Shown here: piece after piece, positions 46,862 to 62,365 of the stretch | Layout of the letters: each line of letters starts with the position of its first letter | Position numbering within the stretch: the first letter of the stretch is position 1 | Assembly: GCF_014651675.1 (NCBI RefSeq) | Contig: NZ_BMXI01000007.1 | Location: 1 to 64,000 of the forward strand | Origin: Roseibacillus persicicus | GTDB taxonomy: Bacteria; Verrucomicrobiota; Verrucomicrobiia; Verrucomicrobiales; Akkermansiaceae | DNA length: 64,000 bases | Direction: 5' to 3' | The notes under the pieces: model-generated | Database searches by the model: none | Told to the model about the DNA's origin: nothing | Seen by the model: the letters and a program-made list of their open reading frames with translations, nothing else | Program-made: the position numbers and the translations under genes

Positions 46862-47563
46862 ATGGCAAACAAAAAAAGTAAGCGTTACCTCAAGGCTGTC
46901 GAGCAGATCGAAGCCGGAAAAGGTTACCCCCTCACGGAGGCTGTCAGCCTTCTCAAGAAACTTCCCGCTCCCAAGTTCGATGGCACCGTCACGGTCTCCT
47001 TCAAGCTGGGGGTCGACCCTCGTAAAAGTGACCAAATGGTCCGGGGCAGTGTCTCCTTGCCCCACGGCACTGGTAAGACTGTCCGCGTGATTGTGTTCGC
47101 AACCGGCGATGCCGCCAAGGCCGCTCAAGAAGCAGGCGCTGACGAAGTGGGCATGGACGACCTCATCAAGAAGGTGCAGGACGGATTCCTCGATTTCGAC
47201 GCCGCTATCGCCACTCCTGATGCGATGAAAGAAGTGCGTAAGATTGCCCGGGTTCTCGGACCACGCGGCCTCATGCCAAACCCCAAGACTGGAACTGTCA
47301 CCGATGATACTGCGAAAGCAATCAACGCGGTGAAAGCTGGTAAGATTGACTACAAGGTAGACAAAAACGGTTGCGTCGCTGCTGCCGTGGGCAAAGTTTC
47401 TTTCGATGAGGCTAAGTTGGTTGAAAACGCCGCAGCTCTCATTGAAAGCTTGGTCAAGGCCAAGCCTGCTTCCGCCAAAGGGGACTACATTCAGTCCGCA
47501 ACTCTTGCTTCCTCCATGTTGCCCGGTCTTCCGTTGGAAGCCTCTCTCTACGCAATCAACTAA
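46862..47563 (+). CDS. rplA: 50S ribosomal protein L1
   Basis: 233 residues. Contains [63 protein letters not shown] and the C-terminal [18 protein letters not shown] typical of L1. The 93-bp gap after rplK holds a hairpin (46816-46839, 9 bp with one mismatch) that could be a regulatory or processing structure. Confidence 0.98.
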
Positions 47564-47581: not shown

Positions 47582-48094
47582 ATGAACCCAGATAAGAAAA
47601 TCATCGTCGACGAGCTTCTCGAAAGAGTAAATGGCTCTCCCTTCCTTCTTGTAGTGGACTACAACGGCATGACCGTGCCCGAGTTCAGTGAGCTTCGCAA
47701 CCGCCTCTCAGAGGTCGGTGCCGAGTGCCACGTTGGCAAAAACCGCTTCATGCGCATTGCGATTGAAGAAGCCGGTCTTCCGAGTCTTGGTGACGACCTT
47801 CGTGGTCAGACCGCTTTCGTGACTGGTGCTGACGACGTTTGCGGTGCCGCCAAAGTCATTAAGAACTTCGCCAAGGAGTTCAAGAAGCCCGAGGTCAAAG
47901 TCGGTCTTTTGGACGGGGCTGTTGTCGATACCGCTCAGATCGATGCTTTGGCAGACCTTCCATCTCGCGAAGTTCTCCTCGCCAAGCTCCTTTCGGTCAT
48001 CAATGCGCCTGCTTCCAAGTTGGTCCGGACCATCAACGAGCCAGGTTCCGCGCTTGCACGCGTCATCAAGGCCAAGTATCCAGACGGCGAGTAA
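47582..48094 (+). CDS. rplJ: 50S ribosomal protein L10
   Basis: 170 residues. L10 is the base on which L12 dimers assemble. Visible features: FLLVVDYNGMTVPEFSELRNRL, VGKNRFMRIAIEEAGL and the L12-binding C-terminal helix (LVRTINEPGSALARVIKAKY). Eighteen bp after rplA. Unusually, rplL is not next: a terminator follows and rplL lies about 9.8 kb away. Confidence 0.97.
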   Translation: MNPDKKIIVDELLERVNGSPFLLVVDYNGMTVPEFSELRNRLSEVGAECHVGKNRFMRIAIEEAGLPSLGDDLRGQTAFVTGADDVCGAAKVIKNFAKEFKKPEVKVGLLDGAVVDTAQIDALADLPSREVLLAKLLSVINAPASKLVRTINEPGSALARVIKAKYPDGE

Positions 48095-48121
48095 GCTCGA
48101 ACTTTTTTCCAGATTTACAGA

Positions 48122-48151
48122 ATGCCCGCCCTGAACCGGCGGGCATTTTTT
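48122..48151 (+). terminator. Rho-independent terminator after rplJ
   Basis: A perfect 9-bp stem (48122-48130 with 48138-48146), 7-nt loop and a run of six T. It ends the secE-nusG-rplKAJ transcript before the inserted genes. Confidence 0.93.
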
Positions 48152-48317
48152 GTGTTTAGAGGTCCCTGTTTCCAGGGCCTCCAGCTAAGTGGGCTGATTT
48201 TTTGTAAGATGATTTGCACCGCGAGGTCTCCGTTGGACATACCCTTTCATGGTACCCAAATCTGATCCTTCGTCGAAAAGTTGGATGAGATGAGAAGTCC
48301 CAAAAAAACAAAAAACC

Positions 48318-50762
48318 ATGAAAGTAATCAAGTTATGCGCCTTGTTGTCCATTGCCGCTGCCTGTTCCTCGCAGGCTCAAGTAACGGTGTCCTATAGTAA
48401 TTTTAATTTCCGGGGCGGCACAGGCAACGGGGGCTTCGGTATTTTCGGAACCTCCTCGGATGGAAGCGTTGTGACCCAAGACGGAAATCCCTATCCAACC
48501 GGCCAGTACACGCCTGTTACCGATTTTCAGTTTCGATGGGACGGTCTGACTCTCGACACGGCTGGTACCGGTGATGATCATATTGATTTCACATTGAGAA
48601 TCACCTCCAATGGAGCTGCCGCCGGCAATGTGCAGTTGGGCGGAGAGGGAATCGGAGTAGCCGGAGGGGTTGGTACTCGCATCGATGAAGATGACCCGGC
48701 AACGACCGATGTCGACGAGTCGGAATCATTACTGATCGAGGTGGTCGATGTGAGCGTGAGTGAAGGTACTCTTGGGACGGTAACGTTCGATGGTTTCACT
48801 GCGGCAGCGGCGTTTGCGGCTGCTGCCGGCGGGGGAGCACCCGGCCTTCAGTTTGATGTGGAAGCTGATGTCAATGGGACCACGGGTTCTTTGAGCCGTA
48901 GCGGAGCAGGGTATCTGTTTGGACAACTTGCTCCTGCCTGGGGTGGTGCTGCAAGCCCGAGTGTCACGGTGGACAACCCTGTCTACAATGCCTTGGGACA
49001 AGACACTGCGACAGGGATGAGGATTTTCTTTCGACAATCTTCATTTTCCTTCACTTTCACGGAAGCTGCAGGCGCTCCCAGCATTTTTGAGTTTAGCTTG
49101 GCGGAAGGGGGATTTGGCACCTTCAATGAGACCCAAGGAAGTTATTTCACCTCAGGGACTCCCGAGAACGAAGCGGATGGTGTTTACGACCAAGACTCAT
49201 TGCAGTTTTTCTTTGACTTGGAGAATGCGACCGAGGCTACGTTGAAAAGGGACGGAGTGGTTGAGCAAACCCTTAGCAATCCTACAACCGGCTTGATTAC
49301 TCCAGCCACGCAACCAGCCGGGGTGTATGAGTATACTCTCGAGGTTACCAACGGCACCGACACCGCGGTGAGCCAGCCGATAACGGTCTATATTGAACAG
49401 CCGATGGTGGTTAGCGAATTTTCAACTCGCTCCAATGCCGGTCAGATTGGGGTGGGCGGCAAGCTCCCTCTTTTCATTTCTGCCGAAGGGGACTTTGATT
49501 TCAATGATGTCACCAATGGCTTGTTCCTTTCCTTCACCGACCAAGCCGAGACTCTCACCGAAGCTGGTGCCGGGGGCTCCAACGGGGACGGCGAACTCAC
49601 TCTGGACTATCGTAACAACACCTTGTTTTTCTCAGAGAATCTGGCCCTCACTAGTCAAACTGGGCGCTTGGACGTTCCTGTGGCTAGTATCGTGGCGGCA
49701 CTTGAGGCTGCAAACAGCCCTCTGACCTTCCCGTTCGACGCGAGGGCCAAGCTGAGCGCGGTCAATCCGGCTGGAACCACCACCGTGGATATCGATTTCA
49801 CCATTTTGGATTCGCAAATTGTTGTCGAGTTGGATGCCGAGACTTTTGTCGTCGATAGCGGCGTTCTCGAAAACCAATATATCAGCCCTTTTGTGCAGGC
49901 TCTCGAAGTTGCCAACGGTGATGTCGTTGATATCGCTGGGAATGGGAGCGTGACCTTCAATTCCGGCCTCGGTGGGGTCATCACTCTAGCAGAGTCGTTT
50001 CAAGGATTCACCTCTTTCCAAGAGGGTTACCGATTCCAAGATGTAACCCATAGTTTGTGGATAGACGTTCCAGAAACTCCGGAAGGTGGCGGATTGATTA
50101 TCAAGTGGGGCAATGATGCCGTCGGAACTTCGATTGGTATCGATTCCGGAAATTTGACCGCAATCACGGTAAATAACGCGAATGCCAGTCAAGTCAGTGC
50201 CCCCATCGATGCCGGATGGCACCACATTGCGGTCACGATTGACATCGGCGGCACCGAACCAAACTCTGTAATCGCGCTCTATCTCGATGGAATTTTGGTT
50301 GATACCGGAGACTCGCCTGCGGAGGTTTTGACGAGCTGGGCCAGTTCTTTGACTGGGGCTCTTTATTCCAATATTGGAGGGGGCGGCTATGCCGGTCAGA
50401 GTGCGGGACTCTTCGATGGAGGAGGATTCTCGAATGCTACTTCAGGGGTGATTCGGATGTATAATGGAATTCTTGATGCCGCTACCATTGAAGCTCTAGC
50501 GGCCGAGTTTATCGACAACAGTGCACCCATCGCCATCGATTCCATTGAATTCAATGGCAGTGACTTGGATATTGTTGCCAGCGGACTGGTGGTGGATACC
50601 GAGTATTATCTGGTCCAAGATACCGATTTGGCGGGGGACTTCTCGACCTTGATTGACACGGTTATTGCTACTTCGGCGGTTGAGACTTTCACCGACGTTG
50701 ATCCAACTGCAGTAGATCCCAAGTCATTCTATCGGGTGACCTCAGTGCCACCGGTCGAGTAA
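48318..50762 (+). CDS. Secreted LamG-containing protein between rplJ and rplL
   Basis: 814 residues with a signal peptide (MKVIKLCALLSIAAACSSQAQ). Residues about 20-270 form a beta-rich domain clearly related to the whole mature part of the nearby PEP-CTERM protein (51056-51748): shared patterns are D-IDFTLR--S, GEGIGV, V-FDGFT and DVNGTT. Ig-like regions follow, then a LamG-like domain at about 555-735 (GWHHIAVTIDIG, IALYLDGILVDTG, GVIRMYNGILDAATI). The C-terminus has the SFYRVTS ending common in verrucomicrobial exported proteins. Function unknown; probably extracellular carbohydrate or surface binding. Confidence 0.82.
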   Translation: MKVIKLCALLSIAAACSSQAQVTVSYSNFNFRGGTGNGGFGIFGTSSDGSVVTQDGNPYPTGQYTPVTDFQFRWDGLTLDTAGTGDDHIDFTLRITSNGAAAGNVQLGGEGIGVAGGVGTRIDEDDPATTDVDESESLLIEVVDVSVSEGTLGTVTFDGFTAAAAFAAAAGGGAPGLQFDVEADVNGTTGSLSRSGAGYLFGQLAPAWGGAASPSVTVDNPVYNALGQDTATGMRIFFRQSSFSFTFTEAAGAPSIFEFSLAEGGFGTFNETQGSYFTSGTPENEADGVYDQDSLQFFFDLENATEATLKRDGVVEQTLSNPTTGLITPATQPAGVYEYTLEVTNGTDTAVSQPITVYIEQPMVVSEFSTRSNAGQIGVGGKLPLFISAEGDFDFNDVTNGLFLSFTDQAETLTEAGAGGSNGDGELTLDYRNNTLFFSENLALTSQTGRLDVPVASIVAALEAANSPLTFPFDARAKLSAVNPAGTTTVDIDFTILDSQIVVELDAETFVVDSGVLENQYISPFVQALEVANGDVVDIAGNGSVTFNSGLGGVITLAESFQGFTSFQEGYRFQDVTHSLWIDVPETPEGGGLIIKWGNDAVGTSIGIDSGNLTAITVNNANASQVSAPIDAGWHHIAVTIDIGGTEPNSVIALYLDGILVDTGDSPAEVLTSWASSLTGALYSNIGGGGYAGQSAGLFDGGGFSNATSGVIRMYNGILDAATIEALAAEFIDNSAPIAIDSIEFNGSDLDIVASGLVVDTEYYLVQDTDLAGDFSTLIDTVIATSAVETFTDVDPTAVDPKSFYRVTSVPPVE

Positions 50763-50785
50763 AGGAACAAATTGGCGAATCATTT

Positions 50786-50843
50786 TTCAGCCTCTTCCTT
50801 GCCCCGTGATCGCGGGGTTTTAGGGAGAGGCTGAAATTGTTTT
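50786..50843 (+). terminator. Terminator-like hairpin after the LamG gene
   Basis: An 11-bp perfect outer stem (50786-50796 with 50827-50837) encloses a smaller CCCCG/CGGGG stem (50803-50818). A short T-rich stretch (TTGTTTT) follows. It lies 23 bp after the stop. Confidence 0.75.
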
Positions 50844-50999
50844 CATCTCCAAGGCTTTGACTACGGCGGTAGGGTCAGGGACTGCAAACTTTTTGTTCGT
50901 TGAGAGAACCATGAGCTAGTCGTCTGATGGAGAAACCCCGCGGAATGGATCAAATTTTGCGTTGAGCAGGGAAAAAGCTAGTCTTTGCCATAATTGGCC

Positions 51000-51030
51000 A
51001 AAAAAAGCGCAAGCCGCGAGACTTGCGCTT
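51000..51030 (-). terminator. Rho-independent terminator of the PEP-CTERM gene
   Basis: A perfect 9-bp stem (51005-51013 with 51022-51030), 8-nt loop and a seven-T run on the minus strand, 25 bp after the stop at 51056. Confidence 0.92.
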
Positions 51031-51055
51031 CTTGAATATCTGAATGTTCGTTCGA

Positions 51056-51748
51056 TTACTTGCGACGACGGAAAGCGAGGAAGCCTCCAGCCAATCCAAG
51101 CAGGGCCACCGAAGATGGTTCGGGGACGGGGACGGTGCTGAATTGCAAGTCGTATGCGCGCGCTACAATAGAAGCACCATCGCCGCCAGAATTGTCGAAC
51201 AAAATGGTAGCTGTCGGAGCGAAAGAGGCGCTAGCAGTTACGAATTGGAAGCCTCCGCCGGTTGTGGCCAAATTAACAGTGGTGCCATTGATATCCACAT
51301 TTCTGGTGAAAACACCGTTGCCGCCCATTCCGGCCGTTCCCTCGGTAAAGCCATCAAAGACGATGGCGTCACCTGAATCTGTGGTGGTACCGGAGAGTCC
51401 AACCACAGAGATCGTCACATTGTTGAGGTTGCCGAACCCAGTATCAATTCCTTGGCCCCAGGCTCTTTGGCTAGCTCCTCCTCCGGAAGCTCGAACTGTA
51501 AAGTTGACAGTGTCGTTGGCCGAGCCGTCACCATCCAAATCCAAGTTTGTATAGCTAATAACCCAATCCAAGGGGTCGGCAGTCGCGTTTCCGGGGCCCG
51601 GGCTCAGCGTCGCGTCATCGTGCCCAAAGAGACCCGTCCCGCGCAAGTCGAGGTTGTCTATCGTTATCGTGGCAGCTTGAGCAACAGCGCCCGTCGCTAG
51701 CAGCGAGGTCGCCATTAAACTACCTAGGTTTTTTGTTCTTATGTTCAT
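51056..51748 (-). CDS. PEP-CTERM protein sharing a domain with the neighbouring LamG protein
   Basis: 230 residues with a signal peptide (MNIRTKNLGSLMATSLLATGAVAQA). The mature part (about 27-205) resembles the N-terminal domain of the adjacent 814-residue protein: DTVNFTVRASGG, GQGID, VFDGFTEG, NVDINGTTVNL. The C-terminus is a PEP-CTERM signal VPEPSSVALLGLAGGFLAFRRRK. It runs opposite to the surrounding ribosomal genes and has its own terminator. Likely a surface or exopolysaccharide-associated protein of unknown function. Confidence 0.88.
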   Translation of the reverse strand: MNIRTKNLGSLMATSLLATGAVAQAATITIDNLDLRGTGLFGHDDATLSPGPGNATADPLDWVISYTNLDLDGDGSANDTVNFTVRASGGGASQRAWGQGIDTGFGNLNNVTISVVGLSGTTTDSGDAIVFDGFTEGTAGMGGNGVFTRNVDINGTTVNLATTGGGFQFVTASASFAPTATILFDNSGGDGASIVARAYDLQFSTVPVPEPSSVALLGLAGGFLAFRRRK

Positions 51749-52114
51749 GGTTTAATTGCAGTTCATTTTTTTGATGTTGGAACAGTCCAACCTTATAAAT
51801 GTGCGTGAATCTTAAAAGGTTAGCAGGAATCGTAAAAAAAGAGAAATTTTGTTCAAGGGGGGAGAATTGCGCTGGGTTCGTGCTGTTAAGAGCGAAAGAC
51901 TTCAGGGGACATAGACCTCAAACGTCTGTGGCGCAGTCAAGAGCGACAGCTTGCCGAGGTGAGGGGGCTGTTCTCGCTAGGAGTGCTTTAGTGAAGAGGA
52001 GGTAGGCTCATCTTTTGTCTCAGCCGCTTGTTCCGGTGAGCTCTGCAAGCCAAGCATCAGGATGTTCACGAATTATTTTTGTAACCATTTCCCGAGCTTT
52101 ACGATAAGAGAGAT
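51749..52114. other. Divergent intergenic region between the PEP-CTERM and PI-PLC genes
   Basis: No gene seen. A 6-bp inverted repeat GTTGGA/TCCAAC (51776-51791, 4-nt loop) lies about 30 bp upstream of the PEP-CTERM start and could be an operator. The rest should hold the PI-PLC gene promoter, which I could not place. Confidence 0.45.
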
Positions 52115-55100
52115 ATGACGATGGTTTTCCGAGCTACTTTTCACTTTGGTTTCTTTTTATTATGCTGCTGCCTGCAGGCCGAGGCGGTGGACTACAAGCG
52201 CTGGATGACGGACAACGTGTCGACCATCGGGGCATACAAGCTGAGGGATCTCGTGATTCCGGGGACGCACGATTCCGGCTCTTACGATCCGCTCAGTCCC
52301 GTGGATTTCGGTGATGCGCGGTGGGACGAATTCTCTGTCGGCGACCACTTTCCGCCGGATGATTATGACAATCCTTGGAAGAGAGCATTGGCGATTACAG
52401 ACGAGCTCTACGAGCCTTGGTCGCAGAATCACAATAAGACGATTCTCCAGCAGATGAACGAAGGGGTCCGATCCATAGACCTGCGGGTGGCGGTGAATGC
52501 CGATGGGGTGATGTATTTCGCGCATGGCCTCTACAACGATACGATTGAAAAGTGTCTCGATGATGCCGAGACCTTTCATGACCAGAATCCGAATGAGATC
52601 ATTATGATCTACTTTCAGAAGTTCTACGACACGTGGATCGATGAGAACCAGGATAGCTCTACTGATTATGAGGACGGCATGCGGGCTTCGAAGCACGAGG
52701 AGTTGGTAGCGATGATCAACGCTCGATTTGCGGGGGACATTGCCTCCTATGAGAATTTTACTCCTTCGAGCACGGTGAGTGATTTGATTAATGCTGGAAA
52801 AACGGTGATCATCTCTTATCAGGTGAGTGAGGCTGATTATTGGGATATTTCCACTTTTGATGGTGATGCCTATAAAACTTCGGATCCAGAGTGGGAGCGC
52901 CCTGTCGAGTTTTGGCCCGGTTATCAGGGGTATGGTCGGAGTGGAGGGGATCAGGACTCCCATCATCGGAGTGTTTACTACGACGGTTTGATTGAGAAGA
53001 TGCTGCCGTCGGATTCGTCGGCCGACTATTACTCGGATGAGGATGCGTTGTTCACTTTTGGAAACGTGACTCATAACAATACTCTGATCGCAAACGGGAC
53101 CTTGGGATTCGGAAGCTATCCAAGAAGTATTCGTGGAGTGGCGGAGGATGCGAATCCGGTTTTGATGCACTGGCTGGTGACCGAGTTGGCAGTTCCTCCT
53201 CCTGCGGGAGCGAATTATCGTTATAAGGGGCGTCCCAATGTGATTGGGATCGATTTTCAAGAGTATGGAGACATTGTGGACGTTTGTCTCGAATTGAACG
53301 GAATCAGCACTGGTAGCGGTGTGCTGGCGAAGTATGCGACTGAACCGGAGTCGGATTGGAATGAAGGGTGGCAGTCTGGTCCGGAGATTGCCTTGGAGTG
53401 GGTCGAGGGGGCTTTGAGTGATACGGGCGATTGGTTCGAGGATGCGGGGGATCAGATTGCGGACTGGTTCGTAGGGGCGGGGAATGATTTTGTAGATTTC
53501 TTTGATGATTTGTTCAGCAGTTCGGACCCAGCCCCGCCCACGTTGCGATCAAACTTTGTGACCGCTAAGAACGGAACCGCTCCGACGGGTCAAATACCGA
53601 CAGGGATCCGGCACTACCAGATTGAAGTGGAATGGATCGATGGGGGAAGCACTCCGATAATTCCCCTAGTGACCGCGCAAATTTATTTTCCTGATTTTAC
53701 CAAGATTCCTAGTAACCCTTCCATCGATGACCTGAGTTGGACGCGTGAGAATCCAATTGGAAACCTGAATCAAGGGGCAAACCATTTTCTGTTTGATGCC
53801 GAATGGCCTTGGTGGGGGCAGTGGGAGGCGAGTTCGGTGGGAACGAAAGACTTTTATATTTCGGAAGAATACTTTCCTCATTCTGTGTTGCCGGTTCTCT
53901 ATTTTTCGTCGGAGTATATTTCCGGCGGGAAGTCATGGACGGCTTGGAGTTATCAGTTCATGACTTTGCCGGAGGAAATTGGTTCTTGTTGGGAAGGGTA
54001 TAGCCAGAGTCTCGCGAACGGGGCGCGGATGAAGTATTGTGTGACTCGCATTCGGGCGGGAGAGCCGAAGGAAGTTCCCAATGTCGTCTGGGAACCTGCT
54101 CTTTGCTACACGGGGGAGCCACTAGGCGGGGGAGTTAGAGGAGTATTGAATGCGAGGACGGAGCCCTTTGTCCCCGGGACCTTTGATTACGCGCAAGTTG
54201 AATCGTCCACGGTGTTGCCTGATGGGGACTATGAGTTACTGGTGCGCTTTGTTCCAGATGACACTGAGCGCTATGCGACGGTTTCCGAGACCGTTGAAAT
54301 ATCGATTGGGCCCAAGCCGCTGCTTGTTCCTGTTATCGAGTGGTTTCCTAGTACAAAGATTTATAATTTGGCAGGTTGGCCCTACGGGGATGCCCAAGCG
54401 AAGGTGAATGGGAACACTATTCCGGGGACCTGGAGCTATACTCCGAAGTTGGGGGAGTATCCTGCTTCCGCTTTAGATGGCTTCTCGCCCTTAGCTTTCC
54501 GCGTTGCGGTTTTCACGCCTGATGATCCGACGACTTATGCTTCTGCTTCTGCTATTGCAGAATATAAAATGAAATTGGAGCAGTTGCCCTTTCATGGAGA
54601 GCCTGTTTCGTTGCCAGGAATCATCGAAACTGGAGAGCATGATACGGGAGGCTGGCTGATTGCCTATAGTAAGCGCTATGGATTCTCTGGGACTGACGAA
54701 GTGGTTCAAAATTTTGGGAACGGTGACTGGATTGAGTATACGGTCGAGGCGGAGCATCCAGGCCACTTCGATATCAAGGTTCTAGCGGGCTCGACCGCCT
54801 CGGAATCGCCGACGTTCCAGATTACGCGGGATGAGGGTCAGGTAGTGCTGGCAAACAATCAGTCGGTCAAAGTTTCCCACAACGCGGCTTGGAACGAGGT
54901 TGTGATGAAGGATGTATTTCTTCCAGCAGGAGTGCACGTGTTGCGATTTGAGAATACGAGTCAGGGTGCCGAGTATCTGAGTTTTGATTTTCAAAATCTG
55001 GAGTTTGCTCAGACCAGTTATTCTAACAGCGACGTCACTGCTCCTGGGGATTTGAGTGTTGCGAGTTCGAGTAACTCTCCCAGTGGAGAAGAAGTTGCGA

Positions 55101-57544
55101 ATGCAATCGATAACGATATTGAGACCAAGTATCTCAATTTTGACGGAGAAGGTTCGGGCTTCACGGTGACACCTGAGCACGCATGGACTAAGGTGGCTGG
55201 GATTGCGCTGACCTCTGCAAACGATTCGCCCAATCGGGATCCCAAGCGGGTGGTCGTGGAAGGAACGGCAGATGGAACAAACTTCGTCACTCTGGTGGAT
55301 GCTGTCGTGCCCGCGTTTACCGAGCGGTTTCAGCGGCAGGAAATTAGGATTGTGAACGCCGTGTCCTATCAGAGTTATCGCATTACATTTCCTGAGATTG
55401 TAGACCCTTCGGTCGAAAACTACATGCAGATTGCAGAAGTGGAGCTGATTGGAGTGCCGAGCGATCCGGGTCCATTGTTGGAAATCGAAGGGCAGAGTTT
55501 CGATTTTGGAGGGGTGCCAGCCACCTACTTTTACCTTCAAGCTGATACTACAATCCTCCCCGTTACCGGCGAGTTCTGGTTGGTGAATCGGGGGGAAAGC
55601 GATGCCACGGTGAGTGCCATCAACCAGACCTTTGGTTCGGTGAATTGGTCTGGAGGGGTGATTGCTCCGGGGGAGAGGCAGAAGGTGCAAATTACCTACG
55701 ACGATCCCGCAGACCTGAGGTTTTTCTACGTGATTGAGGTGGTGTCGGATAGTATTCAAGCGGTGCCGGAAGTGCGAGTGAGCAGTCCGGAAGGGGTGGT
55801 CACCGCTTCGACAGATTTCGACGACCTCATTGAGGAGGTTGATGATGGAGAAGTGATTCGCTTCAGCCAAGAGTTGAATGGTAAAGTGAAGCGTTTGAGT
55901 CAAGTTTGGCTGGAGAAGGAGATTACGCTCGATGCTTCCAATCTTTCGGAAGGAGTTACTCTCGAAGTGACGGGGGAGGGTCGCGCTTTCATGGTGAGGC
56001 CTAACGGAGGTCTGACTTTGCGAGGTCTGAACCTGACTGGAGGAAATGTGGAATCCGGCTGGGGAGGTGCAGTGATGGCCAATGGGCCGGTCTTGATTGA
56101 GAACTGTGCCATCTTTGGAAATGAGGCGCAGTATGGAGGCGGAGTTGCCTGTGACACCGGTGGGTCTCTTACGATGAGGAATGTGACCTTGTTCCGAAAC
56201 CGGTCCACTGTTTCTGGAGGAGCCGTTTTTCACGCCAATGGTTCGGTGGAGGCTCCTGTTCTGTTGGAGAACTGCACCATCAGTGGGAACTGGGCGGGTA
56301 CCAACGGGGGAGGGATTGATCCCAATGAAATTGCTCAGAACACGACCTTGGTGAATTGTATCGTGTCGGGGAATTTCGCGAACTCGGGCGCCAATATTTA
56401 TGGAGCAGCTGACCTACAAGAAAGTAACCTGGTGGATGGTGAAGCCGGGTTGTCGATTCCTGGGTTTTATGGCGGAAGCACCGCTACGATACCCTTGCAT
56501 GCGGGCTCTCCAGCGATTGATGCAGCGGTCTCGGGCGTGATTCCTGAATTCGACCAAAGTGGTCTTGCGAGAGTCGGTGTTCCTGACTTGGGGGCTGCAG
56601 AGTATCAGCCCTTGGATATTGTGAGTATCGCGAAGGCTTCCAGTTACACCCCGAGCGAGCCCATGATGGAGGTGACTTTGAAGACGGTTCCTAACTCGCA
56701 GTATCAGTTGGAGACCAGTGCGGATTTGGAGAACTTTTCGGTGTTGGAGGACAGTGTCGCTCTTGCTGACGGCGACCTCACGATGTGGGAGGTGGAGTTA
56801 CCGGTTGATAGTGGATTCGTGCGAGCTCGCCAATTTTCCGGTCTCTCCCAAGGTCTTCGTGCCTATTGGAATTTCGAAGGGAATGGCAACAATTCCGTTC
56901 TTGCATCGGGAGATGTCGCCAATGACCTTCCTCTCAATGGAGTGGCCCAGGGGGATGTGAGCTACTTTGACAACGGGTTGGGTGGGCAAGCTGCGCTCTT
57001 CGATGGGAATGGTGATCACTTCCAAGTGGATGGAGAAATCGTGGAAGACGCGCCAGACAGCTCGTTCACGATTTCTTCATGGTTCCGTTCGGATGTGTTG
57101 CCGACAGGATCTGAGGTTCAGTTTGTTTATGAGACTTCAATCAATCAGTCGATGTCGCTGAGCTTGAGAGAGGGAATTTATGCTGGCAGCACTGACACCG
57201 AGTTAACTCTGCTACAATTCCGATCTCATGATGGAACGACGGTGACTTTGCAGAAGACTCTCTATGATCATTATTTTGATGGGAAGTGGATGCACGCGGC
57301 AGTGACCTTCGATGCGGATAGCGATACCTTCCTGCTCTATCTGAATGGTGAGCAGGTGAGCTCTCAGTCGGAGGTCGGAAATATCACCGATTTTGCCAAC
57401 TTCCGCATTGGTTCTTCGAGAACGGCGGATTGGGGCTGGTTCAAGGGCGCAATTGATGAGGTGGGGGTGTGGGATCGAGCCTTTACCCAAGTCGAAGTCA
57501 GTTTGCTCTACAACGGGGGAATCGTCACTTCGGTGTTGGACTAG
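52115..57544 (+). CDS. Giant secreted PI-PLC X-domain mosaic protein
   Basis: 1809 residues. The hydrophobic N-terminus (about 5-24) ends LLCCCLQAEA, cleavable by signal peptidase I or possibly a lipoprotein signal. The PI-PLC X-like domain (about 28-400) has LVIPGTHDSGSY (His52), RSIDLRV (Asp122, Arg124) and FAHGLY (His137), matching the two catalytic His and the Arg of bacterial phosphatidylinositol phospholipases. Downstream, by position: two Ig/MBG-like repeats (655-820), a CBM6-like module (825-965), a discoidin-like module (968-1115), an Ig-like module (1123-1225), a beta-helix with GVPDLGAAEY (1228-1510) and a LamG domain (1578-1800). Likely cleaves an inositol- or glycerophospho-linked substrate while bound to a glycan; inference. 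AGAGAG precedes the ATG. Confidence 0.83.
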   Translation: MTMVFRATFHFGFFLLCCCLQAEAVDYKRWMTDNVSTIGAYKLRDLVIPGTHDSGSYDPLSPVDFGDARWDEFSVGDHFPPDDYDNPWKRALAITDELYEPWSQNHNKTILQQMNEGVRSIDLRVAVNADGVMYFAHGLYNDTIEKCLDDAETFHDQNPNEIIMIYFQKFYDTWIDENQDSSTDYEDGMRASKHEELVAMINARFAGDIASYENFTPSSTVSDLINAGKTVIISYQVSEADYWDISTFDGDAYKTSDPEWERPVEFWPGYQGYGRSGGDQDSHHRSVYYDGLIEKMLPSDSSADYYSDEDALFTFGNVTHNNTLIANGTLGFGSYPRSIRGVAEDANPVLMHWLVTELAVPPPAGANYRYKGRPNVIGIDFQEYGDIVDVCLELNGISTGSGVLAKYATEPESDWNEGWQSGPEIALEWVEGALSDTGDWFEDAGDQIADWFVGAGNDFVDFFDDLFSSSDPAPPTLRSNFVTAKNGTAPTGQIPTGIRHYQIEVEWIDGGSTPIIPLVTAQIYFPDFTKIPSNPSIDDLSWTRENPIGNLNQGANHFLFDAEWPWWGQWEASSVGTKDFYISEEYFPHSVLPVLYFSSEYISGGKSWTAWSYQFMTLPEEIGSCWEGYSQSLANGARMKYCVTRIRAGEPKEVPNVVWEPALCYTGEPLGGGVRGVLNARTEPFVPGTFDYAQVESSTVLPDGDYELLVRFVPDDTERYATVSETVEISIGPKPLLVPVIEWFPSTKIYNLAGWPYGDAQAKVNGNTIPGTWSYTPKLGEYPASALDGFSPLAFRVAVFTPDDPTTYASASAIAEYKMKLEQLPFHGEPVSLPGIIETGEHDTGGWLIAYSKRYGFSGTDEVVQNFGNGDWIEYTVEAEHPGHFDIKVLAGSTASESPTFQITRDEGQVVLANNQSVKVSHNAAWNEVVMKDVFLPAGVHVLRFENTSQGAEYLSFDFQNLEFAQTSYSNSDVTAPGDLSVASSSNSPSGEEVANAIDNDIETKYLNFDGEGSGFTVTPEHAWTKVAGIALTSANDSPNRDPKRVVVEGTADGTNFVTLVDAVVPAFTERFQRQEIRIVNAVSYQSYRITFPEIVDPSVENYMQIAEVELIGVPSDPGPLLEIEGQSFDFGGVPATYFYLQADTTILPVTGEFWLVNRGESDATVSAINQTFGSVNWSGGVIAPGERQKVQITYDDPADLRFFYVIEVVSDSIQAVPEVRVSSPEGVVTASTDFDDLIEEVDDGEVIRFSQELNGKVKRLSQVWLEKEITLDASNLSEGVTLEVTGEGRAFMVRPNGGLTLRGLNLTGGNVESGWGGAVMANGPVLIENCAIFGNEAQYGGGVACDTGGSLTMRNVTLFRNRSTVSGGAVFHANGSVEAPVLLENCTISGNWAGTNGGGIDPNEIAQNTTLVNCIVSGNFANSGANIYGAADLQESNLVDGEAGLSIPGFYGGSTATIPLHAGSPAIDAAVSGVIPEFDQSGLARVGVPDLGAAEYQPLDIVSIAKASSYTPSEPMMEVTLKTVPNSQYQLETSADLENFSVLEDSVALADGDLTMWEVELPVDSGFVRARQFSGLSQGLRAYWNFEGNGNNSVLASGDVANDLPLNGVAQGDVSYFDNGLGGQAALFDGNGDHFQVDGEIVEDAPDSSFTISSWFRSDVLPTGSEVQFVYETSINQSMSLSLREGIYAGSTDTELTLLQFRSHDGTTVTLQKTLYDHYFDGKWMHAAVTFDADSDTFLLYLNGEQVSSQSEVGNITDFANFRIGSSRTADWGWFKGAIDEVGVWDRAFTQVEVSLLYNGGIVTSVLD

Positions 57545-57747
57545 GAAGTCTTGCCTGGTGTCATTCGCTATCCGCTTAGGGGGGGAGTTCGATCGGGTGA
57601 GGGGTCGTAAAAAGAGGAAGATTGTCGAGATTTTCAGAAATTTTCGTAGCATTCTTGAAAAAAGACTTGAATGGTTGGTCCATATGGTCGAGACACCTCG
57701 CCCCTTGCTCTCTTTCTTCGAAGGAGATGGGGCTGGGCGGGTTACAG

Positions 57748-57776
57748 TTGAGAGAGAGAATTTACGAATTTAGAAC
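57748..57776 (+). promoter_or_regulatory. Probable sigma-70 promoter of rplL-rpoBC
   Basis: TTGAGA (57748-57753), exactly 17 bp, then TAGAAC (57771-57776). The -35 matches consensus at five of six bases and the -10 at four of six. Transcription would start near 57782, right at the first leader hairpin, about 120 nt before rplL. Confidence 0.65.
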
Positions 57777-57780
57777 AGAT

Positions 57781-57875
57781 GCTGCGGGTTTTCGCATTCC
57801 GCAGCTGTCAAGGGAATGGTCCCTAGTCGGGGCTCACGGCTGTGAGAACTGAAATGGACCGGAGGCTTCCGGTCC
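57781..57875 (+). promoter_or_regulatory. Structured 5' leader of rplL with four consecutive hairpins
   Basis: Four perfect stems in a row: 57781-57787/57799-57805 (7 bp), 57811-57815/57820-57824 (5 bp, loop ATGG), 57833-57837/57842-57846 (5 bp) and 57856-57863/57868-57875 (8 bp, loop GGCT). They fill the predicted untranslated leader up to 29 bases before the rplL ATG, with no T-tract after any of them. A ribosomal-protein leader that senses free L10-L12 is the obvious hypothesis; not proven. Confidence 0.7.
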
Positions 57876-57904
57876 GCGACGACACCAACCGAAAAAATAA
57901 AAAA

Positions 57905-58279
57905 ATGGCTGATATTAATAGCATTGCAGAAGAATTGGGCAAGTTGACCGTACTTGAAGCGGCAGAACTTGTGAAGAAGCTTGAAGAAGAGTGGGGCGTA
58001 TCCGCAGCGGCACCCGTGGCTGCTGCTGCTGGTCCTGCTGCTGAAGCTGCACCTGTGGAAGAGAAGACTGATTTTGACGTCTTTCTTGCTGAAGCTGGTG
58101 GCAACAAGATTGCTGTCATTAAGGCAGTTCGCGGAGTTGTTTCCGGTCTTGGTCTCGCTGAAGCTAAGAAGCTTGTTGAAAGCGCTCCAGTTGTTCTCGC
58201 TGAGGGAATGGCCAAGGATGCCGCTGAAGAAGCAAAGAAAGCTCTCGAAGAGGCTGGCGCCAAAGTCGAACTCAAGTAA
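57905..58279 (+). CDS. rplL: 50S ribosomal protein L7/L12
   Basis: 124 residues. The N-terminal dimerisation part ([27 protein letters not shown]) is joined by an Ala/Pro-rich hinge (about 35-50) to the factor-binding domain ([40 protein letters not shown]...PVVLAEGM). The ATG at 57905 begins [11 protein letters not shown]; an upstream in-frame alternative is rejected as it adds leader sequence. It is separated from rplJ, with its own promoter and leader. Confidence 0.97.
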
Positions 58280-58297: not shown

Positions 58298-58403
58298 TCC
58301 GAGGGGGCTTCGTGCCTCCTCGGACTTTTCGGCTTCTGGTATCAGCGATGCTTTTCCTGCTAGCAAATCCAGATACCAGAAGCCGGACTAGTCCGAAATT
58401 TTT
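58298..58403 (+). terminator. Two successive hairpins between rplL and rpoB (attenuator or processing site)
   Basis: Hairpin 1: 58298-58308 with 58314-58324, 11 bp with one G-T, followed by CTTTTC. Hairpin 2: a perfect 13-bp stem 58331-58343 with 58372-58384, extended by CGGACT/AGTCCG (58321-58326 with 58390-58395), then TTTTT at 58399-58403. The outer part of hairpin 2 uses bases of hairpin 1, so the two partly exclude each other. E. coli has an attenuator and an RNase III site at the same place. Confidence 0.75.

Positions 58404-58486: not shown

Positions 58487-62365
<3,879 letters not shown>

What the first reader, a model, noticed from the sequence alone, without database searches (positions are those of the whole stretch)
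48095..57904. rplJ and rplL are split by a 9.8-kb block of secreted-protein genes
In most bacteria L10 and L12 genes are adjacent and co-translated, giving a controlled 1:4 ratio. Here rplJ ends in a perfect terminator (48122-48151), then come an 814-residue LamG protein, an oppositely oriented PEP-CTERM protein and an 1809-residue PI-PLC mosaic before rplL-rpoB-rpoC resumes. Gene order on both sides is otherwise canonical, so an ancestral cluster was opened exactly at the rplJ/rplL junction without visible mobile-element remains. The inserted genes are probably expressed separately, since each large gene is bounded by non-coding DNA and two have terminators.
Basis: partly seen in the sequence, partly recalled or inferred. 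Interest (0 to 1): 0.72.

Follow-up and report, generated by a model that had tools for sequence, protein, structure and literature searches.

The report
rplL split off with its leader
In a small group of Verrucomicrobia the genes for two partner ribosomal proteins, normally side by side, have been pulled apart, and the second gene kept a conserved RNA structure in front of it that probably controls it, so the split is a natural test of how cells balance these proteins.

Summary
In detail: rplJ and rplL, each single-copy, lie 9,810 bp apart. In 131 of 131 other sampled genomes of the order with both genes on one contig the gap is 140-347 bp. It is neither a misassembly nor a one-off insertion. 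The two nearest relatives (Roseibacillus ishigakijimensis and a Roseibacillus MAG, outside that sample) also have the genes apart, each with different neighbours. The three group together; their unsplit sister has the normal pair. So the operon most likely broke once, just after the rplJ stop codon, and G000's secreted-protein genes are local filling.

It matches no Rfam family. After the split it stayed with rplL, and the three genomes share a new upstream block (57645-57740, candidate promoter). Best reading: operon fission, with rplL an independent unit carrying its own leader. Its hairpin-UNAAA layout resembles L10(L12)4 target RNAs, but binding is inferred and no kink-turn was seen.

The parts
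46862..47563 (+). rplA (L1); only 18 bp before rplJ, so there is no room for an L10 leader upstream of rplJ
   Evidence: rplA-rplJ gaps 11-50 bp between match ends in 58 verrucomicrobial loci
47582..48094 (+). rplJ (ribosomal protein L10), last gene of the left unit
   Evidence: single match
48119..48149 (+). intrinsic terminator after rplJ (12-pair stem running into T6); hairpin plus T run also after rplJ in G153 and G159
48318..50762 (+). 814-aa LamG_3 protein; local filling in G000
   Evidence: no full-length match in 97 genomes of the family, at most 10 candidates scored per genome; partial matches in G120 only
51056..51748 (-). 230-aa PEP-CTERM protein; local filling in G000
   Evidence: relatives not searched
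52115..57544 (+). 1809-aa mosaic: PI-PLC-like N-terminus, CBM6/F5-F8-like (below Pfam cut-offs), choice-of-anchor Q, C-terminal LamG_3
   Evidence: no full-length match in 97 genomes of the family (at most 4 candidates scored per genome), partial matches in 31 of 97 including three more in G000
57645..57740 (+). block shared by the three split genomes and absent from unsplit G088: AAAAAAGACTTGA-N21-GACAYYTCG..CCTYGCT; candidate new promoter of rplL (TTGAWY, 17 nt, RAGACA; hexamers are my reading)
   Evidence: exact pattern at 57659-57695; once in each of G000, G153, G159, none in G088, none for the reversed pattern in these four genomes; alignment
57781..57805 (+). hairpin preceded by GAACAGATG, as in the rplJ-rplL gap of relatives soon after the rplJ stop; places the break just after rplJ
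57813..57891 (+). conserved structured RNA (rplL leader): GGU..., GUCGG, hairpin 1, CUNAAA, hairpin 2, CGAC..ACC
   Evidence: R1 55.6 bits, E 1.7e-10 (G000 is one of the 39 training sequences); alignment and covariation
57905..58279 (+). rplL (ribosomal protein L7/L12), first gene of the right unit
   Evidence: single match
58487..62365 (+). rpoB, downstream gene of the right unit
   Evidence: 92-97% identical in G153, G159 and G088

Best explanation
Operon fission. In the ancestor of a Roseibacillus clade of Akkermansiaceae (order Verrucomicrobiales), the nusG-rplK-rplA-rplJ | rplL-rpoB cluster was broken immediately after the rplJ stop codon. The left unit has an intrinsic terminator after rplJ. 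The right unit kept the whole original intergenic region, including a hairpin and a conserved structured leader RNA, and gained a new upstream block that probably holds its promoter. The space between then diverged: G000 holds three secreted-protein genes, the sisters hold other genes, and in one of them rplL lies behind a 5S rRNA gene. Shown: the split, its sharing, the retained RNA and the common new block. Supported: a single event. Inferred: promoter function, and regulation of rplL by the leader, most likely by L10(L12)4 (about 0.5), so that L12 output no longer depends on linkage to rplJ.
For: Gap 140-347 bp in 131 of 131 other sampled genomes with both genes on one contig, and 9.8 kb in G000. 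In G153 (R. ishigakijimensis KCTC 12986) and G159 (MAG), rplJ and rplL lie on different contigs: 9.2 kb and 3.5 kb without rplL follow rplJ to the contig end, and 2.5 kb and 0.5 kb precede rplL. The bipartition of the three split genomes against unsplit G088 and the rest has UFBoot 100 for NusG-L11-L1-L10 (18 taxa) and 74 for L12-RpoB (10 taxa). The shared upstream pattern occurs once per split genome, 0 in G088, 0 reversed. Leader RNA: 93.7% of cells paired, covariation 0.530 against 0.185 in shuffles, 0/500. It is found in 37 of 37 sampled genomes of the order, 15 of them in the model's training set, in 58 of 58 named verrucomicrobial loci that hold both genes, some of them training genomes, and before rplL in both split sisters, which were not in the training set. 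The layout passes a strict scan in 11 of 39 other rplL-upstream regions against 1 in 780 shuffled. rplA-rplJ gaps are only 11-50 bp against 412 in E. coli.
Against: In G153 and G159 contigs end before the two genes can be linked, so their real distance is unknown, and only three split genomes are known. UFBoot for the split clade is only 74 on the rplL side. No expression data: the promoter hexamers are a reading by eye and the sigma-70 scan did not flag them; a looser pattern also hits three unsplit loci, L157, L159 and L171, on the other strand before rplJ. The count of pairs with double changes alone (14 of 21) is not beyond shuffles (59/500). L10 binding is untested: Rfam L10_leader does not match, though at E<=0.1 that scan also did not report it at the E. 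coli leader, so this negative is weak. R1 does not find the E. coli L10 leader or 23S site; tandem G-A pairs of a k-turn were not seen. In G000, G153 and G088 the joiner is UGAAA, not UUAAA, and the G000 element fails the strict layout scan. The 9.8 kb in one orientation in G000 would also fit a simple insertion as first step.
Confidence: 0.85

Rival explanations
1. A single recent insertion of a 9.8-kb island of secreted-protein genes into an intact operon, private to this genome.
For: Co-orientation and short distance of rplJ and rplL in G000; no full-length match of the two large proteins among the candidates scored in 97 genomes of the family.
Against: Two sister genomes are split with different contents and share the new upstream block and a terminator after rplJ.
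Confidence: 0.1
2. Assembly error joining unrelated sequence between rplJ and rplL.
For: G000 is a 92-contig draft.
Against: The locus lies inside a 258-kb contig; rplJ followed by a terminator and no rplL is assembled independently in R. ishigakijimensis and in a MAG.
Confidence: 0.02
3. The conserved RNA before rplL is not an L10(L12)4 target but a processing, stability or translation-initiation element (for example an RNase III site or a standby structure), or binds another ligand.
For: No Rfam L10_leader match, no k-turn signature, an A-rich start region without an evident Shine-Dalgarno sequence.
Against: Position directly before rplL throughout the sampled order, the hairpin-UNAAA layout like the E. 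coli L10 leader and the 23S GTPase centre, and lack of room for a leader before rplJ.
Confidence: 0.45

Closest known systems
L10 leader (Rfam RF00557) of E. coli and B. subtilis rplJL operons
   Same: A stem holding a hairpin followed by UUAA in an r-protein mRNA leader; in B. subtilis a k-turn and an unpaired UAA belong to the L10(L12)4 target (passages of PMC4538822). E. coli sequence read.
   Different: Sits before rplL, not rplJ; has a second hairpin after the UNAAA joiner; no sheared G-A pairs seen; no RF00557 match.
23S rRNA GTPase-associated centre, H42-H43-H44
   Same: Stem, hairpin, AUUUAAAG joiner, hairpin, stem, in that order (E. coli sequence; helix names and boundaries recalled).
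   Different: No match to the R1 model at that place; hairpin sequences unlike; verrucomicrobial 23S could not be compared (one search found nothing).
[quoted passage not shown]
   Same: Gene insertion followed in some descendants by full separation; nrdHEF between rplL and rsmC is described (passages).
   Different: Here the break lies inside the rplJ|rplL pair; the passages seen describe relocation of rplJL as a pair in H. influenzae, not its division.
Ribosomal leader candidates of PMC7247131
   Same: Covarying RNAs upstream of r-protein genes, with the ligand inferred from the gene.
   Different: A term search of the main text found no L10, L12, rplJ or Verrucomicrobi; its one 'rpll' hit stands in a gene list beside S6:S18 and may mean rplI. 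Its supplements were not searched.

Membership tests
L10 leader (RF00557) | Match to the covariance model at the gathering score | tested here: not met
   Not listed in 13 relatives at E<=5, nor in window 57640-57904 at E<=10; none over the cut-off in the genome, where the best of 4 weak matches is 22.7 bits. Weak negative: over the cut-off in only 3 of 14 control genomes and not reported at the E. coli leader at E<=0.1
L10 leader (RF00557) | Located upstream of rplJ | tested here: not met
   rplA-rplJ gap 18 bp here, 11-50 bp in 58 loci; the element is upstream of rplL
L10 leader (RF00557) | Hairpin followed by an unpaired UAA within a stem | tested here: inconclusive
   UUAAA in many relatives, but UGAAA in G000, G153 and G088; layout scan 11 of 39 outside the order, G000 itself not
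L10 leader (RF00557) | Kink-turn | tested here: not met
   The 3-nt bulge UCC is followed by covarying Watson-Crick/GU pairs, no tandem G-A (columns 14-75 and 15-74); k-turn rule recalled, sequence reading only
L10 leader (RF00557) | Bound by L10(L12)4 and repressing its own mRNA | not testable with these tools
   needs binding and reporter assays
Cis-acting structured r-protein leader RNA (broad kind) | Covarying structure conserved directly upstream of one r-protein gene | tested here: met
Operon fission or insertion in the rpoBC cluster | Ancestral adjacency, derived separation, vertical inheritance of both halves | tested here: met
   (split clade 100 on the rplJ side, 74 on the rplL side; wider genus clade 100 on both)

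The most novel reading that the evidence does not exclude
Verrucomicrobiae moved the L10(L12)4 target from before rplJ to before rplL and built it as a fuller mimic of the 23S GTPase centre (stem, H43-like hairpin, UNAAA joiner, H44-like hairpin). It tunes L12 alone, so the L12 excess is set at rplL. That made rplL a portable self-regulated unit, and the Roseibacillus split is the natural proof that operon linkage of L10 and L12 is dispensable.
Probability: 0.35. Interest if true: 0.75.

Novelty: new variant of a known kind. Interest (0 to 1): 0.55.

Why it matters
[quoted passage not shown] Here linkage is lost in one clade and kept in its sister, while a conserved RNA before rplL, which matches no Rfam family and was not found in the paper searches, persists in both. 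That makes the relative roles of co-transcription and of an rplL-specific leader directly testable, and adds a candidate r-protein leader for a bacterial order, with similar layouts in its class.

Tried and rejected
Private insertion: dropped when the two nearest Roseibacillus genomes proved split with other contents. Misassembly: dropped for the same reason. Second rplJ-rplL pair: none. L10_leader of Rfam: no match. Other Rfam matches near the locus (mir-29, SNORD112, Atu_C9, sR3 and the like) are below their gathering scores and judged chance. Sigma-70 scan: 5 promoter-like sites against 7.6 in shuffles, none at the rplL block. R1 against the E. coli rplJ leader and 23S rRNA: best 12.2 bits, inside rplK. 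Verrucomicrobial 23S rRNA for a mimicry test: 0 of 7 genomes matched even with 2 mismatches, which I cannot explain. A second covariance model for other orders was not built: alignment A6 is poor at the 5' stem, so a strict layout scan with shuffles was used instead. Its settings were chosen after seeing the sequences, so it supports but is not blind; 28 of 39 regions fail it, and several of those show the layout by eye only. The first iqtree run failed on a thread setting and was repeated. The support values that one search printed after re-rooting were shifted to wrong nodes; one search read them from the unrooted trees and those are used here (100 and 74, not 91 and 98; odds left as they were). 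First alignment A1 was trimmed wrongly for G000 and G088 and replaced by A2. A2 holds 39 of the 48 genomes extracted.
Full report
What is there. The window's genome (G000, 5.28 Mb, 92 contigs; the window is in a 258-kb contig) has one rplJ and one rplL, 9,810 bp apart, with an 814-aa LamG_3 protein, a reverse-strand PEP-CTERM protein and an 1809-aa PI-PLC-like/LamG mosaic between them.

How unusual it is. Of 141 genomes sampled in the order, 134 have both genes and 132 have both on one contig, giving 133 pairs (one genome has two). All pairs but G000's are 140-347 bp apart, median 193 (three weak partial extra rplL matches were left out). In 68 loci found by the L10 protein in named genomes, 59 hold both genes 97-447 bp apart. 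Of the other nine, seven end within 260 bp of rplJ and two, both Roseibacillus, do not show rplL within 3 kb.

The split is shared. Those two are G159 (an uncultured Roseibacillus MAG) and G153 (R. ishigakijimensis KCTC 12986); neither was in the 141-genome sample. In both, rplJ is followed by a hairpin with a T run and by other genes, with no rplL to the contig end: 3.5 kb with a PAS/SpoIIE protein, and 9.2 kb with a glycosyltransferase and an amine oxidase. rplL, single in each genome, lies on another contig. Upstream of it G153 has a weakly thioredoxin-like gene (2.5 kb to the contig end), and G159 has a 5S rRNA gene (0.5 kb to the contig end; Rfam 71.3 bits). None of these genes is among the three in G000. 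In trees of NusG-L11-L1-L10 (18 taxa) and of L12-RpoB (10 taxa), the three split genomes are separated from unsplit G088 and the rest with UFBoot 100 and 74, and the four together from the rest with 100 in both. One ancestral split is the simplest reading, with both halves vertically inherited; the rplL-side support is modest.

Where the break is. Relatives have, soon after the rplJ stop, a hairpin with GAAC..GATG and then the leader RNA. In G000 that region precedes rplL (from about 57771 to 57904), so the break lies close behind the rplJ stop codon. Upstream of it the three split genomes share a block (57645-57740) with the pattern AAAAAGACTTGA-N(18-26)-GACA. The pattern occurs exactly once in each of the three genomes, not in G088, and not at all when read backwards. 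A looser form also matches three unsplit loci, on the other strand before rplJ, judged chance. I read the block as a new promoter; its hexamers are unproven and the sigma-70 scan does not flag them.

The leader RNA. Alignment of 39 rplL-upstream sequences gives 21 pairs with 93.7% of cells paired, 155 cells changed on both sides against 43.9 in shuffles, and covariation 0.530 against 0.185 (0 of 500) and at most 0.185 when slid. The number of pairs with a double change (14) is not by itself beyond shuffles (12.4, 59 of 500). Model R1 finds one match per genome in 43 of 288 genomes of the phylum: 37 of 37 of the order (15 of them training genomes; membership checked), five of the same class and one weak match elsewhere (E 0.09, not tied to rplL). 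The five each lie 10-18 bp upstream of rplL. In named loci it is present in all 58 verrucomicrobial loci with both genes, some of them training genomes, and, cut off, in three more. It is also before rplL in both split sisters. Rfam release 15 has no match to it.

Beyond the order. I chose 40 genomes outside the order; 39 of the regions fetched lie upstream of rplL, and 37 of these show rplJ just upstream. Unfiltered R1 refinds the five class genomes and, weakly (E 0.004-0.08), five more at the right place (L207, L227, L237, L206, L228); L209 (E 0.95) is also in place, L216 (E 0.37) is not. A strict scan for stem, hairpin, UNAA, hairpin, stem finds 11 of 39 against 1 in 780 shuffled regions. 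Two of the 11 are R1 positives, and all 11 are among the 26 regions of the same class, none among the 13 of other classes (my count). G000's own element and the E. coli sequences fail this strict scan. Several regions from other classes have short gaps with no such element (L231-L236, by eye).

What it probably does. L10(L12)4 recognises a kink-turn and an unpaired UAA in the B. subtilis leader and in 23S rRNA (passages of PMC4538822). In E. coli the target lies before rplJ, where the gap is 412 bp, and a stem with a hairpin followed by UUAAU is found there (its equation with the L10 site is recalled). In Verrucomicrobia the gap before rplJ is only 11-50 bp, whereas the gap before rplL holds a stem with a hairpin followed by UNAAA. 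The second hairpin after the joiner recalls the order of helices in the 23S GTPase centre (helix names recalled). This supports, but does not show, an L10(L12)4 target moved to rplL. Against it: no RF00557 match (a weak negative, since at E<=0.1 the E. coli leader was not reported either), no k-turn G-A pairs, UGAAA rather than UUAAA in G000, G153 and G088, and no R1 match at the E. coli sites.

What is known. Insertions and later disconnection in this cluster are described for Gammaproteobacteria and Bacilli (PMC8046335, passages); the passages I saw describe no split between rplJ and rplL. Searches for papers on Verrucomicrobi + rplJ + rplL (0), for rplL or L12 leader phrases (3: one then read in passages, two seen in the listing only) and for rplL + intergenic + structured RNA + Akkermansia (4 by listing; one of them searched by term) gave no description of this RNA. 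Subscription journals and preprints are not covered.

Verdict. The split is a new case of a known kind. The leader is a candidate r-protein leader without an Rfam family, and it is the more interesting half.

Noticed in passing
58300-58400; L003 1934-2000; L012 1890-1954: Long hairpins also fill the rplL-rpoB gap (G000: GGCTTCTGGTATC...GATACCAGAAGCC by eye; in G088 a strong fold matched by chance to mir-29). They recall the attenuator and RNase III region before rpoB in E. coli (recalled).
   Followed up: no
L191 10982-11080 (G159): In the Roseibacillus MAG, rplL lies directly behind a 5S rRNA gene (Rfam) and a terminator-like hairpin, so rplL-rpoB now follows an rRNA gene.
   Followed up: partly
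L198-L201, L207, L210, L212-L214, L229, L237: Other families of the class show rplJ-rplL leader variants by eye (for example CCACCTAG-hairpin-hairpin-CTAGGTGG), suggesting class-wide diversification of this RNA.
   Followed up: partly
L203-L205, L224, L225; also L216: Genomes of other classes of the phylum carry another recurrent rplJ-rplL motif: GTGTCGTAAAA in the first five, and GGTTGCACAA or GGTTACACAA before rplL in all six, unlike R1.
   Followed up: no
G000:C10:55366-57033, G000:C2:158930-160849, G000:C5:191358-192017: Three further loci of the genome share C-terminal parts (within residues 1165-1805) of the 1809-aa protein at 35-45% identity: a family of large secreted mosaics.
   Followed up: no
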